Shown here: piece by piece, positions 48,151 through 52,630 of the stretch
How the letters are laid out: every line of letters begins with the position of its first letter
Position numbering within the stretch: position 1 is the first letter of the stretch
Source: a virus
Reading direction: 5' to 3' (one strand)
DNA length: 64,000 nucleotides
Virus record (IMG/VR): IMGVR_UViG_3300025655_000022
Span: 23,178 to 87,177 of that record
Notes under the pieces: model-generated
What the model was told of the DNA's origin: nothing
The model's input: the letters and a program-made list of their open reading frames with translations, nothing else
Databases searched by the model: none
Made by a program: the position numbers and the translations under genes

Positions 48151-48483
48151 TTATGCAAATGTGTCTGGCCAGTCTCGATAATATGCGTGTTTGATATCCT
48201 CTACAAATTGATTAAACGATTTGTGTTTGGTTTCCAGTTCACCTTCCAGAGGGGCTACACGCTGAAACGCCTCTTCTAATTGTGCCATGTTCTTGAATTC
48301 CATCATGATATGCCATTCAGGCAAATCAGGAATACTTGCGAAACCCATTTTGCAACGAGTAATGCGATAGCCTTCGCATTTTCCTTCAGATTTCAGATGT
48401 TCTAAAAATCCTTTCATGTTGTTAACCCAATCGATATCCGAAATATCCGTGGACTTTTCAGCCCAAATATGATAAATGTCCAT
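48151..48483 (-). CDS. DUF6614-like small protein of unknown function
   Basis: The 110-residue protein fits a compact family remembered as DUF6614 from bacteria: MDIYHIWAEKSTDISDIDW, FLEHLKSEGKCEGYRITRCK, EWHIMMEFKNMAQLEEAFQR, and a final YYRDWPDTF. It has a ferredoxin-like alternation of strands and helices. The function of that family is not known. In a phage it would be a transferred host-type gene. It starts one base into the stop of the gene at 48483 (TAATG), so it is coupled. The family assignment is from memory and needs a profile search. Confidence 0.5.
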   Translation of the reverse strand: MDIYHIWAEKSTDISDIDWVNNMKGFLEHLKSEGKCEGYRITRCKMGFASIPDLPEWHIMMEFKNMAQLEEAFQRVAPLEGELETKHKSFNQFVEDIKHAYYRDWPDTFA

Positions 48484-48905
48484 TATGTTCTTGGTCCTAA
48501 AATTTCAAATCCGTCAATTTGACGTTTGTATTCGGTAGCTTCGCCTAAGTACAAATAGTCAAACCCTCTACTTTTATAAAACGCACATTCACTTCGTAAG
48601 CTAGAAATTCCTAAATGTAGCTTAGGATTTTGATAATCCCATGCAAATTGAATGGCTTCTACATTTTTATTATTATAAACACGCATTAAGCTAAATGCAA
48701 CCAATTTATCTTGATCATAATATCCTAGAACATCATTTGTGAAATATTCCTCGGTAAAAATAGGCATTACAGATCGGAATTTTTTATGAGCACAATATGT
48801 ATTATAAATGCGCTCTAATTCAATTGGATTTGGATTTACAATAAATTCAAAATTATCCAAAATGCTGTAATTGGTATCTGCCAGTCGTATACGGGCATAT
48901 ATCAT
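48483..48905 (-). CDS. GNAT-like acyltransferase, arginyl-transferase C-terminus type
   Basis: The 140-residue protein reads GYYDQDKLVAFSLMRVYNNK, then AIQFAWDY, LGISSLRSECAFYKSRG and FDYLYLGEATEYK. The order of a strand, a helix starting with small residues and YLYLGEA resembles the C-terminal GNAT half of arginyl/leucyl-tRNA protein transferases. It could be a small aminoacyl or acetyl transferase, but the N-terminal half of that family is absent, so the activity is unknown. ATGA overlap with the upstream gene at 48902-48905. Confidence 0.5.
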   Translation of the reverse strand: MIYARIRLADTNYSILDNFEFIVNPNPIELERIYNTYCAHKKFRSVMPIFTEEYFTNDVLGYYDQDKLVAFSLMRVYNNKNVEAIQFAWDYQNPKLHLGISSLRSECAFYKSRGFDYLYLGEATEYKRQIDGFEILGPRT

Positions 48906-49405
48906 GATCTGGGATCCTTCCTGTTTGTAAACAAATCATCTAAATATTCTGAATCCCATCCATTATAGTAACCTTTTTTGTATAGTTGCACACTAGCATC
49001 GTCGAGATTTTTAGTTAGAGCACAAATGCTTAATGCATACGTTCCTTGATTAAAACAAACTCCATTTTGTTCTTCGTAATGTCCAGGATGATCTGATAAG
49101 CTAATAAGCCCAGCATTTTTCATTGGTCCGTTGTTTGCAGCGTCGATATGATCATTAAATTCGTCAGCACCCCATAATTCTGGGTCGTATATGTAAACAA
49201 CAACTTCCCAGTTTTCCATACCTTTTTTGCTTAACATTAGCAAGTCTAAATACGGATCTCCGCCTAAACGAAAATCAATTTGATTTTTTAAGCGTGCTTG
49301 TTTAGCATACGGGCACGGTGGAAATCCTCCTAATGCTGGGTGAGGAACTTCGATAAAGTTTTGTAACCAATCTATAACTGACTGTTTTGCTTCGGTTAAA
49401 TTCAT
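48902..49405 (-). CDS. Conserved-type phage protein with PCPYAKQAR motif, unknown function
   Basis: The 167-residue protein has FIEVPHPALGGFPPCPYAKQ near residues 17-36, then GGDPYLDLLML, VVYIYDPELW and a C-terminal YNGWDSEYLDDLF. The two-step pattern PCPYAKQAR with a following VYIYDPE resembles a hypothetical family from aquatic phages, but I do not recognise an enzyme. Its start forms TAATG with the end of the -1 extension gene upstream, and its stop forms ATGA with the acyltransferase gene. Confidence 0.5.
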   Translation of the reverse strand: MNLTEAKQSVIDWLQNFIEVPHPALGGFPPCPYAKQARLKNQIDFRLGGDPYLDLLMLSKKGMENWEVVVYIYDPELWGADEFNDHIDAANNGPMKNAGLISLSDHPGHYEEQNGVCFNQGTYALSICALTKNLDDASVQLYKKGYYNGWDSEYLDDLFTNRKDPRS

Positions 49406-49635
49406 TAAAAATACGGGAGTCCTGATTTTTTGGTTGTTTCCAGATTGTCTTTGAGCAGTTTTCCAATGCTCTCACGTTCAGAATTACTTAGCATCAGTGC
49501 ATGATCGTAACTGATTCCGCCGCGCATGCCCCAGGATATTCTGAGCGATTCTTCTTTGATGGCCACACACTCTTTTTCCATGTCATCCACTAGCCTGGAT
49601 ATCTGGTCAGAATCCAGCGTGAGCAGCCTTACCCG
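49405..49635 (-). CDS. -1 frame extension of the gp26-like gene (candidate frameshifted tail chaperone tail)
   Basis: From the slippery site onward the -1 frame is open for 76 codons and reads RVRLLTLDSDQISRLVDDME, then ECVAIKEESLRISWGMRGGI and ...LSNSERESIGKLLKDNLE with TTKKSGLPYF at the end. It has no ATG or GTG until GTG 49590 or ATG 49581, neither with a clear ribosome site, while the 15 in-frame codons before GTG 49590 carry coherent, helix-like sequence. This is expected if it is reached by -1 slippage from the gp26-like gene, giving a 350-residue fusion. Small proteins with the RGGISY...TTKKSG pattern lie beside gp26-like genes in aquatic phages and may be tail assembly chaperones. Independent translation from GTG 49590 is the alternative. 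Confidence 0.65.
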   Translation of the reverse strand, partial: RVRLLTLDSDQISRLVDDMEKECVAIKEESLRISWGMRGGISYDHALMLSNSERESIGKLLKDNLETTKKSGLPYF

Positions 49636-49641
49636 AAAAAA
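49595..49641 (-). promoter_or_regulatory. Candidate -1 programmed frameshift site: U UUU UUC plus downstream stem
   Basis: The gp26-like frame reads AAT TTT TTC GGG TAA, so T TTT TTC (49641-49635) is an in-frame -1 slippery heptamer two codons before the stop. Seventeen bases later CTGGATTCT (49617-49609) pairs with AGATATCCAG (49604-49595), one bulged T, loop GACC. Slippage enters a 76-codon open frame. Confidence 0.65.
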
Positions 49642-50456
49642 TTCGACATATCAAATGTAAACGGTTGAGCATATTCATGACCACAATGTGTGCATTTGAT
49701 GTTAAGTGGTTTGAGTTCGCTTTCTGTCTTTAACTTAATAACACGATCACGTAACCGATCAAACACTTCACGATCGCAATTACGTAAAAACTCGTCGATG
49801 TGTTTGCGATCCTGTACTACTGTTTCTGGTGTTTTAATGGCAGCAATGCCTTGGCCCACTGCCTTTAGGGTGAGTTCGCCTATTTTTCGAAACGCATCAG
49901 CAAGAATATTAAGTTTTTGCTTGTCATCCATGTCAGTATTGTCAATGACTGATACCAGTTTTTGTTCTTCAAATTGAAGTACATTGTTTTCTGACATTTG
50001 TTTGTAATTTAACGGTCTGAAATAAACTTCTAAATCACCAATGATTTCAGGAGTTCTGAAATCTGGCGCTGCCAACCCTTCTATTACGGTACGCAAATCT
50101 AGTGCATATGTGGATTCTTCACCACATTTTGTACAAGTGGTGTCAATATCCATGCTGTGCCCATAACTTGCAATTCTTATGGCAACTAGTATGGAATCTA
50201 AATCAACACTGGGCACTGCCCAGGCATTTTTGATGTTTGGAACGCAACTCTGAATTACATCAACTACGGCTTGTCCATTGAACAGCGCATCTGGTGTTCG
50301 ATAGGTGATTTCATCAATGGCCGTCATGGGAAACACTGGTAGTTCATGAGTTTCAGTCATGTTTAATGTATCCTTGGCATAATATTGACCGTCACTGGGC
50401 AGTTTAATGTAAATTGCAGGGCGTCTAAAATAAGTTGTTAAAGGGTTATTTTCCAT
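49629..50456 (-). CDS. gp26-like baseplate/tail assembly protein with two CxxC zinc sites
   Basis: The 275-residue protein has LPSDGQYYAKDTLNMTE, VFPMTAIDEITYRTPDALF, NGQAVVDVIQSCVPNI and two zinc-type sites, CTKCGEE (near 107-113) and CTHCGHE (near 256-262). These are features of a baseplate hub/assembly protein common in aquatic T4-like phages, here called gp26-like; the numbering is tentative. Phage G/GT chaperones also sit next to the tape measure gene, as this one does (divergent, 50 bases away). Its last codons contain the slippery sequence described above, so it may exist both as this form and as a longer fusion. It heads the leftward operon to 48151. Confidence 0.7.
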   Translation of the reverse strand: MENNPLTTYFRRPAIYIKLPSDGQYYAKDTLNMTETHELPVFPMTAIDEITYRTPDALFNGQAVVDVIQSCVPNIKNAWAVPSVDLDSILVAIRIASYGHSMDIDTTCTKCGEESTYALDLRTVIEGLAAPDFRTPEIIGDLEVYFRPLNYKQMSENNVLQFEEQKLVSVIDNTDMDDKQKLNILADAFRKIGELTLKAVGQGIAAIKTPETVVQDRKHIDEFLRNCDREVFDRLRDRVIKLKTESELKPLNIKCTHCGHEYAQPFTFDMSNFFG

Positions 50457-50506: not shown

Positions 50507-52630
50507 ATGGCTGATGAAAACGACGATATAGATGACAAAGCTGAACGAGCGATAGATCGCATTGAAGATCTGATCCTGGAAATGACAAAAATGCCAGGTG
50601 TTACCAAGGCACAACTGGACAGACTTGCACGATCAGCTGGCCGCGCTGCTGATGGACTGGATGAAGCTGCCCGTGTAAGCACACACATGAAAAAGTTAGC
50701 TGGTGCAATACCAGGGCTAACCGCAGGATTAAGTCGTGGAACCACTAATTTTTCACAACTAAGTGGAGTTATTTCAGGAACAATCAGTGTCATAACTGCT
50801 TTTGCAAAGAAGATTCCATATGTTGGTGGTGCTCTGGGAATTGCTGGTGATGCAATTTCAGCATCAACAGTACCCATCATTGAATCGTTTGATCGTGCAT
50901 ACTCATCATTTGAACAACTGAGTCAAATTGGTGCCATTAGTGGTGAAGGCATCGACGGCATGGTTGATAACTTTGCACAATTGGGATTACCACTGCAAAC
51001 ATATCAACAATTAGTTCAGTCAAACAGCACTAGGTTAGCGCATCTGGGTGGCACAGTTGGTGACGCGGCAGACAGTTTTACTGATGCCGCTGGTGTTATG
51101 AAACGAACCAACGCTGAAAATGCCATCAGCGAGCAAAACTTACGTAGACTGGGATTTAGTGCTGACGAAATATCAGATACCATGATACAATATGCAGACA
51201 TTCAGCGCAGAATGGGTCTGCAAGGCTACATGGATCAGCAAAAGTTGACTGAAGGAACCATAGCATATGGCAGAGAACTGGATGCCATTGCCAAGTTAAC
51301 CGGTCAAAGCCGCAAACAATTAAAAGATCAGAATGATGCAGCACTGCGTAATGCCAGATTTAACGCAAGATTACGTGAAGTAGAAGCTACACAAGGTCGC
51401 GAAGCGGCAGAAAACCTACGCATGATGAATCTGGCACTCAGTAACTACCCTGAACTGCAAAAAGGATTTCAGGATGCAGCATCAGGATTTGTTAGTACAA
51501 CTGAAGCACAGAAATTCTTTATTACCACTCAGGGACAAGGCACCCGTGTAATTGAAGGTGTGATTAATAAACAAATCGGCCTGGAACAGGGGTTAGGTTC
51601 ATTACAACAGTCAATTCAGCAAACAATCCCATATCAGCAGAGTTTAGTTAAAGCTACTGGTGATGCAAACAATGCATTTGTGAACTTTTATGAAACATCA
51701 GGGTTTGCAACGGCAGCACAAGGAGATCTTGCTGAAGCTGCTAGACGGGCACGTGACGCACAAGATCAACAGGTTAAAGATGCCAGCGATAATGCCAAAA
51801 ACTTACAAAAAGCTCGTGGAGATCTTGAACAAGCAGCAAGCAACGTTGATTTATTAATTCTAAAATTGCCTGTAGTAACAGCCACTATTGAAGAATTTTC
51901 CAATGCCATCAAAGCAGCAACCAATCAGTTACGTTACAGAAACATTGAAGGACCAGTTGGTGAAGCGCCAAGTCTGACTGGCGCCAGAATGATTGTGGAT
52001 GAGATTGCAAAAACCAATCAAATTCTGGAATCCAGTGTTGACCCAACAACAGGAAAAAACCTAACTGAAGAACAAATTGTTGATCTTGCTAACAAATTAG
52101 ATGCTCTTAAAAACGCACTGGTAGAAACCAATCAGAGAATCCGAGAAGAAACCAGTGGCGCACAAGGGTACAAAACCCCTAGAATGGATCGACCTTTCCT
52201 GAACGATGCTGAACGAGGTGCTTTCCGTGAACGTGTGATTGACAGTTTGGTTGATTTTTATCGTGCAAATCAGCCAACCACCGCAGCACCTTCAGCACCC
52301 ACCTCAAATGTAACAGAACCGCCAGCATCTGCTGTATCTGATGCACAAAATCAAGGTCTAACTGCACCAGTAGCACCACAAGCCGGTCAGGCCAGAGGTG
52401 CAGTGGTTAGTGGTCCTCGATCAGGGTATCAGACTACTTTGCATGGCACTGAAGCTGTAATACCACTTGATTCGACACGTAAAATTCCAGTTGAAATAAC
52501 TGATTCTCGTGATTCATCAGCAGCATTGCAAATGATGTCTGCACAATTAGCCAAGCTGGATGACATGGTATCAGAATTAAAACGTAACACAGACGTTAAC
52601 GAAAAGATATTCCGCACCAGATACAGCTAA
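50507..52630 (+). CDS. Tail tape measure protein (gp29 analogue)
   Basis: The 707-residue protein is long, helical and Ala/Gln-rich, with a hydrophobic stretch near residues 82-130 (SGVISGTISVITAFA, VGGALGIAGDAISAS), as in tape measures. Near the C-terminus GYQTTLHGTEAVIPLD is the tape-measure/tail-tip motif of many phages. Its length sets tail length and its interior may pass into the cell. It follows a full-consensus late promoter and is 8 bases before the portal gene. Adjacency to a candidate frameshifted chaperone gene strengthens this call. Confidence 0.75.
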   Translation: MADENDDIDDKAERAIDRIEDLILEMTKMPGVTKAQLDRLARSAGRAADGLDEAARVSTHMKKLAGAIPGLTAGLSRGTTNFSQLSGVISGTISVITAFAKKIPYVGGALGIAGDAISASTVPIIESFDRAYSSFEQLSQIGAISGEGIDGMVDNFAQLGLPLQTYQQLVQSNSTRLAHLGGTVGDAADSFTDAAGVMKRTNAENAISEQNLRRLGFSADEISDTMIQYADIQRRMGLQGYMDQQKLTEGTIAYGRELDAIAKLTGQSRKQLKDQNDAALRNARFNARLREVEATQGREAAENLRMMNLALSNYPELQKGFQDAASGFVSTTEAQKFFITTQGQGTRVIEGVINKQIGLEQGLGSLQQSIQQTIPYQQSLVKATGDANNAFVNFYETSGFATAAQGDLAEAARRARDAQDQQVKDASDNAKNLQKARGDLEQAASNVDLLILKLPVVTATIEEFSNAIKAATNQLRYRNIEGPVGEAPSLTGARMIVDEIAKTNQILESSVDPTTGKNLTEEQIVDLANKLDALKNALVETNQRIREETSGAQGYKTPRMDRPFLNDAERGAFRERVIDSLVDFYRANQPTTAAPSAPTSNVTEPPASAVSDAQNQGLTAPVAPQAGQARGAVVSGPRSGYQTTLHGTEAVIPLDSTRKIPVEITDSRDSSAALQMMSAQLAKLDDMVSELKRNTDVNEKIFRTRYS

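What the first reader, a model, noticed from the sequence alone, without database searches (positions are those of the whole stretch)
49595..49641. Candidate -1 programmed frameshift joining a gp26-like gene to a tail-chaperone-type extension
Seen: the last codons of the gp26-like gene are AAT TTT TTC GGG TAA, so T TTT TTC is a perfect in-frame -1 heptamer. The -1 frame is open across the stop for 76 codons and contains coherent sequence upstream of any ATG/GTG. A 9-bp stem with one bulge starts 17 bases after the heptamer. Known: lambda-like G/GT tail chaperones use -1 slippage and lie beside the tape measure gene; this gene is divergent from, and next to, the tape measure. Inferred: a 275-residue form and a 350-residue fusion are both made. 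I am not aware of such a frameshift being described for T4-type phages.
Basis: partly seen in the sequence, partly recalled or inferred. Interest (0 to 1): 0.82.

Follow-up and report, generated by a model that had tools for sequence, protein, structure and literature searches.

The report
Frameshifted tail chaperone in T4-like phage
Some ribosomes reading this phage tail-assembly gene almost certainly slip back one base near its end and add a 76-residue tail, a way of making two proteins from one gene that many phages use and that has already been reported for some T4-like phages.

Summary
On the minus strand the gp26-like gene (Pfam T4_baseplate) ends AAT TTT TTC GGG TAA, and the -1 frame is open for 76 codons past U UUU UUC. 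In-frame U UUU UUC ends 84 of 87 gp26 relatives of the window group, 12 of 12 of 121Q (jumbo coliphage) type, 81 of 82 best matched by the cyanophage query (the exception is a T4-type gp51), and both KVP40-type loci. In the window group the -1 frame is uninterrupted and under protein-coding constraint upstream of the commonest first start codons, and the base before the two Phe codons is always T, whatever the amino acid. T4 gp51 is itself a gp26-like domain plus an extension, so T4 uses two genes where its relatives use a frameshift. Vladimirov et al. (2022) already identified gp26/gp51 as tail assembly chaperones; a later paper credits them with poly-T slip sites in T4-like phages. Added here: the window/jumbo lineages, whose extension is hardly alignable to gp51 and which are annotated as two genes, or miss the second, in every annotated record inspected.

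The parts
49629..50456 (-). gp26-like gene, short tail assembly chaperone form (TAC-N), 275 aa, with two CxxC pairs
   Evidence: Pfam T4_baseplate PF12322 E=6e-18, phrog_150 'baseplate hub' E=2.7e-18; AlphaFold2 pLDDT 87.6
49635..49641 (-). slippery heptamer U UUU UUC in the 0 frame (Asn-Phe-Phe)
   Evidence: conserved in 84 of 87 window-group relatives, 12 of 12 of 121Q type, 81 of 82 best matched by the S-PM2 query, 2 of 2 of KVP40 type
49629..49631 (-). 0-frame stop codon UAA, one codon after the heptamer
   Evidence: 3 nt after the heptamer here; 3 to 33 nt in relatives
49405..49635 (-). -1 frame extension, 76 codons plus stop (TAC-C-like); fused to residues 1-274 it gives a 350-aa long form
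   Evidence: no stop in 44 of 44 representatives of this length; pN/pS 0.47 overall and 0.55 in codons 1-13, against 0.97 and 1.41 overall in the other frames; AlphaFold2 pLDDT 88, helical
49405..49590 (-). 61-aa ORF (GTG start) that lies wholly inside the extension; probably not a separate gene
   Evidence: position of the first start codon varies from codon 2 to 37 among relatives and one lacks any; anti-Shine-Dalgarno pairing of the best internal start in the window -3.3 kcal/mol
   Evidence: z -0.64, no consensus structure in 44 representatives

Best explanation
[quoted passage not shown] Most ribosomes finish at the UAA and make the 275-aa short form. A minority slip back one base when tRNA-Phe sits on UUU and UUC of U UUU UUC, and go on in the -1 frame to make a 350-aa long form (NFF-RVRLL junction). 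By analogy with lambda gpG/gpGT and T4 gp26/gp51, the short form coats the tape measure protein and the minor long form recruits tail tube subunits through its extension. Shown by sequence: the conserved slip site, the conserved coding -1 frame starting at the slip site, and homology to T4 gp26 and to the N-terminal part of gp51. Inferred: slippage itself, its efficiency, and the roles of the two forms.
For: Heptamer and open -1 frame conserved across four groups. The base before TTT TTC is T in 48 of 48 representatives while the residue is N, S, A, D, R or H; chance of TTT TTC in all 48 from Phe codon use about 2e-32, treating them as independent. Coding constraint only in the -1 frame from the heptamer onward. 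No in-frame TTTTTTC elsewhere in these genes. PF12322 homology, and T4 gp26 and gp51 N-part both match PF12322 at 8e-65 and 2e-53. The tree places T4 gp26 and gp51 as sisters inside the frameshifting clades (97/88 support), so the frameshift looks ancestral. Literature on the same mechanism: PMC5009743, PMC12846349, PMC10885494.
Against: No protein or ribosome-profiling data were available. No conserved stimulatory structure in the window group. The extension is only weakly similar to gp51's C-terminus (hhalign E 0.009 to 0.03, probability under 5%), so the role of the extension is an analogy. PDB fold searches gave no match that ties either model to a known tail chaperone.
Confidence: 0.92

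Rival explanations
1. The 61-residue ORF is a separate small gene, translated by re-initiation or from its own start (a stand-alone gp51-like protein), as public records annotate it.
For: Records of S-PM2, P-HM1, KVP40, 121Q, BF and others list two separate CDS. The window has a GTG start at 49590 and some relatives have fair ribosome-binding sites at internal starts (13 of 46 at -5 kcal/mol or better).
Against: Coding constraint begins at the heptamer, upstream of the commonest first start codons (pN/pS 0.55 in codons 1-13). Start position is not conserved and one representative has none. It does not explain the invariant slip site.
Confidence: 0.04
2. RNA polymerase, not the ribosome, slips on the T6 run and inserts one U in some transcripts; the same NFF-RVRLL junction results.
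For: A T6 run is present; an inserted U would give the same protein, so peptides alone cannot tell the two apart (reasoning from the sequence).
Against: Six T are short for productive transcriptional slippage (general knowledge). The last base C is near-invariant although TTT would also encode Phe and lengthen the run. The phase of the run relative to the codons is fixed.
Confidence: 0.03
3. Chance or a sequencing error: the two ORFs are a broken gene or accidental neighbours.
For: None found.
Against: The same arrangement in more than 150 contigs and named genomes.
Confidence: 0.01

Closest known systems
Tail assembly chaperones of T4-like phages: gp26 (TAC-N) and gp51 (TAC-NC), Vladimirov, Gautam and Davidson 2022, Virology 566:9-15
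   Same: Same Pfam family (PF12322); short form plus C-terminally extended form; poly-T slip site reported for T4-like TAC-N genes (as cited in PMC12846349)
   Different: T4 itself has two genes and no slip site (gp26 ends GAG TTC TTT GAG TTA CTA TAA); the window extension is only weakly similar to gp51's C-terminus. The paper itself could not be read here.
Cyanophage S-PM2 and vibriophage KVP40 gp26 plus short gp51
   Same: T TTT TTC at the end of gp26 and an open -1 frame
   Different: Extension of gp51 type (phrog_634), 57-66 residues; S-PM2-like cyanophages carry a hairpin after the slip site
Jumbo myoviruses 121Q, RaK2, GAP32, CBB, PA5oct, Atu_ph07, Phosso
   Same: Same heptamer; same type of extension as the window (hhalign E=7e-13 for the 121Q type; 36-39% identity for Phosso and Atu_ph07); in 121Q, RaK2 and PA5oct a divergent structural gene next to it, as here
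   Different: gp26 only about 26-32% identical; records show two CDS, or gp26 alone (RaK2, PA5oct), never a joined one
Lambda gpG/gpGT tail assembly chaperone frameshift
   Same: -1 frameshift near the end of a tail chaperone gene close to the tape measure gene
   Different: Slip site G GGA AAG (general knowledge); sequence relationship to gp26 not tested; here the neighbouring tape-measure candidate is divergently transcribed

Membership tests
[quoted passage not shown]
Tail assembly chaperone with -1 programmed frameshift (G/GT type) | -1 frame open from the slip site across the 0-frame stop and under coding constraint | tested here: met
Tail assembly chaperone with -1 programmed frameshift (G/GT type) | Gene lies beside the tape measure gene | tested here: inconclusive
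   The divergent neighbour 50507-52630 (707 aa) has no significant family match; its position matches that of RaK2's structural protein, noted in that record as similar to a tape measure protein
Tail assembly chaperone with -1 programmed frameshift (G/GT type) | Both short and long products are made in a fixed ratio | not testable with these tools
   needs proteomics or ribosome profiling
Tail assembly chaperone with -1 programmed frameshift (G/GT type) | Short form binds tape measure protein, extension binds tube protein | not testable with these tools
   needs binding assays
T4 gp26/gp51 chaperones (PF12322) | PF12322 domain in the first ORF | tested here: met
   E=6e-18, 65.8 bits against cut-off 24.5
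T4 gp26/gp51 chaperones (PF12322) | C-terminal extension homologous to gp51's last about 50 residues (phrog_634) | tested here: inconclusive
   no phrog_634 match for the window extension; hhalign to T4 gp51 C-part E=0.0094 and to cyanophage extensions E=0.03, both at probability under 5%

The most novel reading that the evidence does not exclude
The frameshift is ancestral to all gp26-bearing phages (jumbo, cyanophage, vibriophage), and the T4 lineage replaced recoding by gene duplication (gp26 plus gp51). In the window/jumbo branch the extension is a second type of TAC-C, not gp51, carried in a frame that the records inspected miss or annotate as a separate gene.
Probability: 0.6. Interest if true: 0.5.

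Novelty: new member of a known kind. Interest (0 to 1): 0.38.

Why it matters
A 2016 review states that G-T type frameshifting is conserved in long-tailed phages 'except T4' (PMC5009743). These data show it at the end of gp26 in several T4-related groups and in many large phages, so T4 looks like the derived exception that swapped recoding for gene duplication. It also means that the jumbo and marine T4-like records inspected here hold a mis-annotated tail gene (two CDS, or a missing one, instead of one joined CDS), which affects proteomics and any work on these tails with cloned genes.

Tried and rejected
Naming the extension from families: no match in Pfam or NCBIfam, and none in PHROGs below E 0.01. 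PDB fold searches: no match for the extension with E <= 0.001; for gp26 only common helical arrangements under Z 8 and no sequence match. Independent start for the 61-aa ORF: tested through start codon positions and ribosome-binding strength, not favoured. The key prior paper (Vladimirov et al. 2022) is not held; its content is taken from papers that cite it. My memory that its abstract reports frameshifting in several T4-like groups could not be checked. The frame call for IME-SM1 (L204) used the annotated CDS end and was not pursued.

Full report
What is there. The gene is on the minus strand. The gp26-like ORF runs from 50456 to 49629 (275 aa) and ends AAT TTT TTC GGG TAA; the heptamer T TTT TTC is at 49635-49641 and the -1 frame reads R-V-R-L-L-T-L-D... 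for 76 codons to a stop at 49405-49407. The first ORF matches Pfam T4_baseplate (E 6e-18) and phrog_150 'baseplate hub' (E 2.7e-18).

Conservation. A scan of viral contigs gave 80 relatives. In 79 of them the gp26 gene ends with T TTT TTC in frame, and all keep the -1 frame FFRxxLL or close variants of it; the exception L050 has T TTT TCC with the same -1 peptide. Counted over all loci fetched, in-frame TTTTTTC is present in 84 of 87 in the window group, 12 of 12 in the 121Q group, 81 of 82 best matched by the S-PM2 query (the exception, L196, is the gp51 gene of a T4-type phage, not a cyanophage) and 2 of 2 of KVP40 type. The other two window-group exceptions are XacN1, with T TTT TTT, and a distant uncultured phage without the site.

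Nucleotide-level constraint. Among 48 representatives (under 90% identity) the base before TTT TTC is T in all, although the codon is AAT, AGT, GCT, GAT, CGT or CAT. From Phe codon use elsewhere in the same genes, TTT TTC in all 48 has a chance of about 2e-32 if they were independent, which they are not; the figure is only an indication. In 12,943 other codons of these genes in-frame TTTTTTC never occurs.

Coding in the -1 frame. In 44 representatives with a 76-codon extension no stop interrupts the -1 frame, against means of 7.6 and 5.3 stops in the other two frames. pN/pS is 0.47 in the -1 frame, 0.97 and 1.41 in the others. In codons 1-13 it is 0.55 against 0.98 and 1.62. The first possible start codon lies anywhere from codon 2 to 37 and one sequence has none. 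So translation enters this frame at the heptamer, not at an internal start.

Stimulator. The window stem is not significant (z -0.64), is broken in L003-L005, and the group has no consensus structure. Group means of z for the 60 nt after the site are -0.9 (window), 0.1 (121Q) and -2.5 (S-PM2 group). In one S-PM2 subgroup a long hairpin about 9 nt after the site has one C-G to U-A pair exchange. The close 0-frame stop (3 to 33 nt away) is the only other common feature.

Relation to T4. T4 gp26 and the N-terminal part of gp51 both match PF12322 (8e-65 and 1.8e-53), so gp51 is a gp26-like domain with an extension. KVP40 and S-PM2 have the frameshift arrangement with a gp51-type extension. The 2010 comparison of T4-like phages had noted that cyanophage gp51 is only about 20% as long as T4's (PMC3037559), which the frameshift now explains. 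In the gp26 tree T4 gp26 and gp51 are sisters (97/88) within the clade that also holds the cyanophage and KVP40 frameshifters, with the window/jumbo frameshifters on the other side. The simplest reading is an ancestral frameshift replaced by duplication in the T4 lineage; the root was placed at the midpoint and several branches are long.

Two classes of extension. Window and 121Q-type extensions align well (hhalign E 7e-13), as do cyanophage and T4 gp51 ones (E 1.7e-9); between the classes the match is weak (E 0.005 to 0.2, probability under 7%). The window extension has no phrog_634 match and is predicted to be a few helices.

Breadth. Additional phages keep a -1 extension with varied slip sites: T TTT TTC in P-HM1, Aeromonas P19, ACP17 and OLIVR6; T TTT TTT in pf16; T TTT TTG in RHph_I1_9; G GTT TTC and GTT TTT C in two Ackermannviridae. 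None of the annotated regions inspected shows a joined CDS here.

Prior art. PMC5009743 (2016) calls T4 the exception to conserved G-T frameshifting. PRFect (PMC10885494) cites Vladimirov et al. 2022 for T4-like phages that carry a short gene and a fused longer gene instead. PMC12846349 (2025) describes the same kind of frameshift in Vandenendeviridae and says poly-T slip sites are known in T4-like TAC-N genes, citing the same paper. Whether the window/jumbo groups were covered could not be checked.

Verdict. Real, strongly conserved and very probably a functional -1 programmed frameshift in a tail assembly chaperone gene; a new member of a known kind, with some added value for annotation and for the evolution of gp26/gp51.

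Noticed in passing
window 49403-49407 (-): The next gene (48902-49405) starts in a TAATG overlap with the stop of the -1 frame, so its translation may be coupled to ribosomes that have frameshifted.
   Followed up: no
L104:3176-3235, L105, L107, L110, L111, L113, L114, L116, L117, L123, L124, L127: S-PM2-like cyanophages carry a strong hairpin about 9 nt after the slip site, with one compensatory pair change.
   Followed up: partly
L206, L207 (Ackermannviridae), L208, L201: More distant gp26 genes keep a -1 extension but use other slip sites (GTT TTT C, G GTT TTC, T TTT TTG, T TTT TTT).
   Followed up: partly
L050 near 4449: One relative has T TTT TCC instead of T TTT TTC with the -1 frame intact: a sequencing error or a weaker slip site.
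   Followed up: no
window 48151-48483 (-) and 48483-48905 (-): Short genes downstream: a DUF6614 protein (E 3e-26) and one resembling the C-terminal part of arginine-tRNA-protein transferase (E 8e-7).
   Followed up: no
L097:2303-2929 (T4 gene 26): T4 gp26 still ends ...EFFELL but with TTC TTT codons, as if the Phe pair were a relic of a lost slip site.
   Followed up: no
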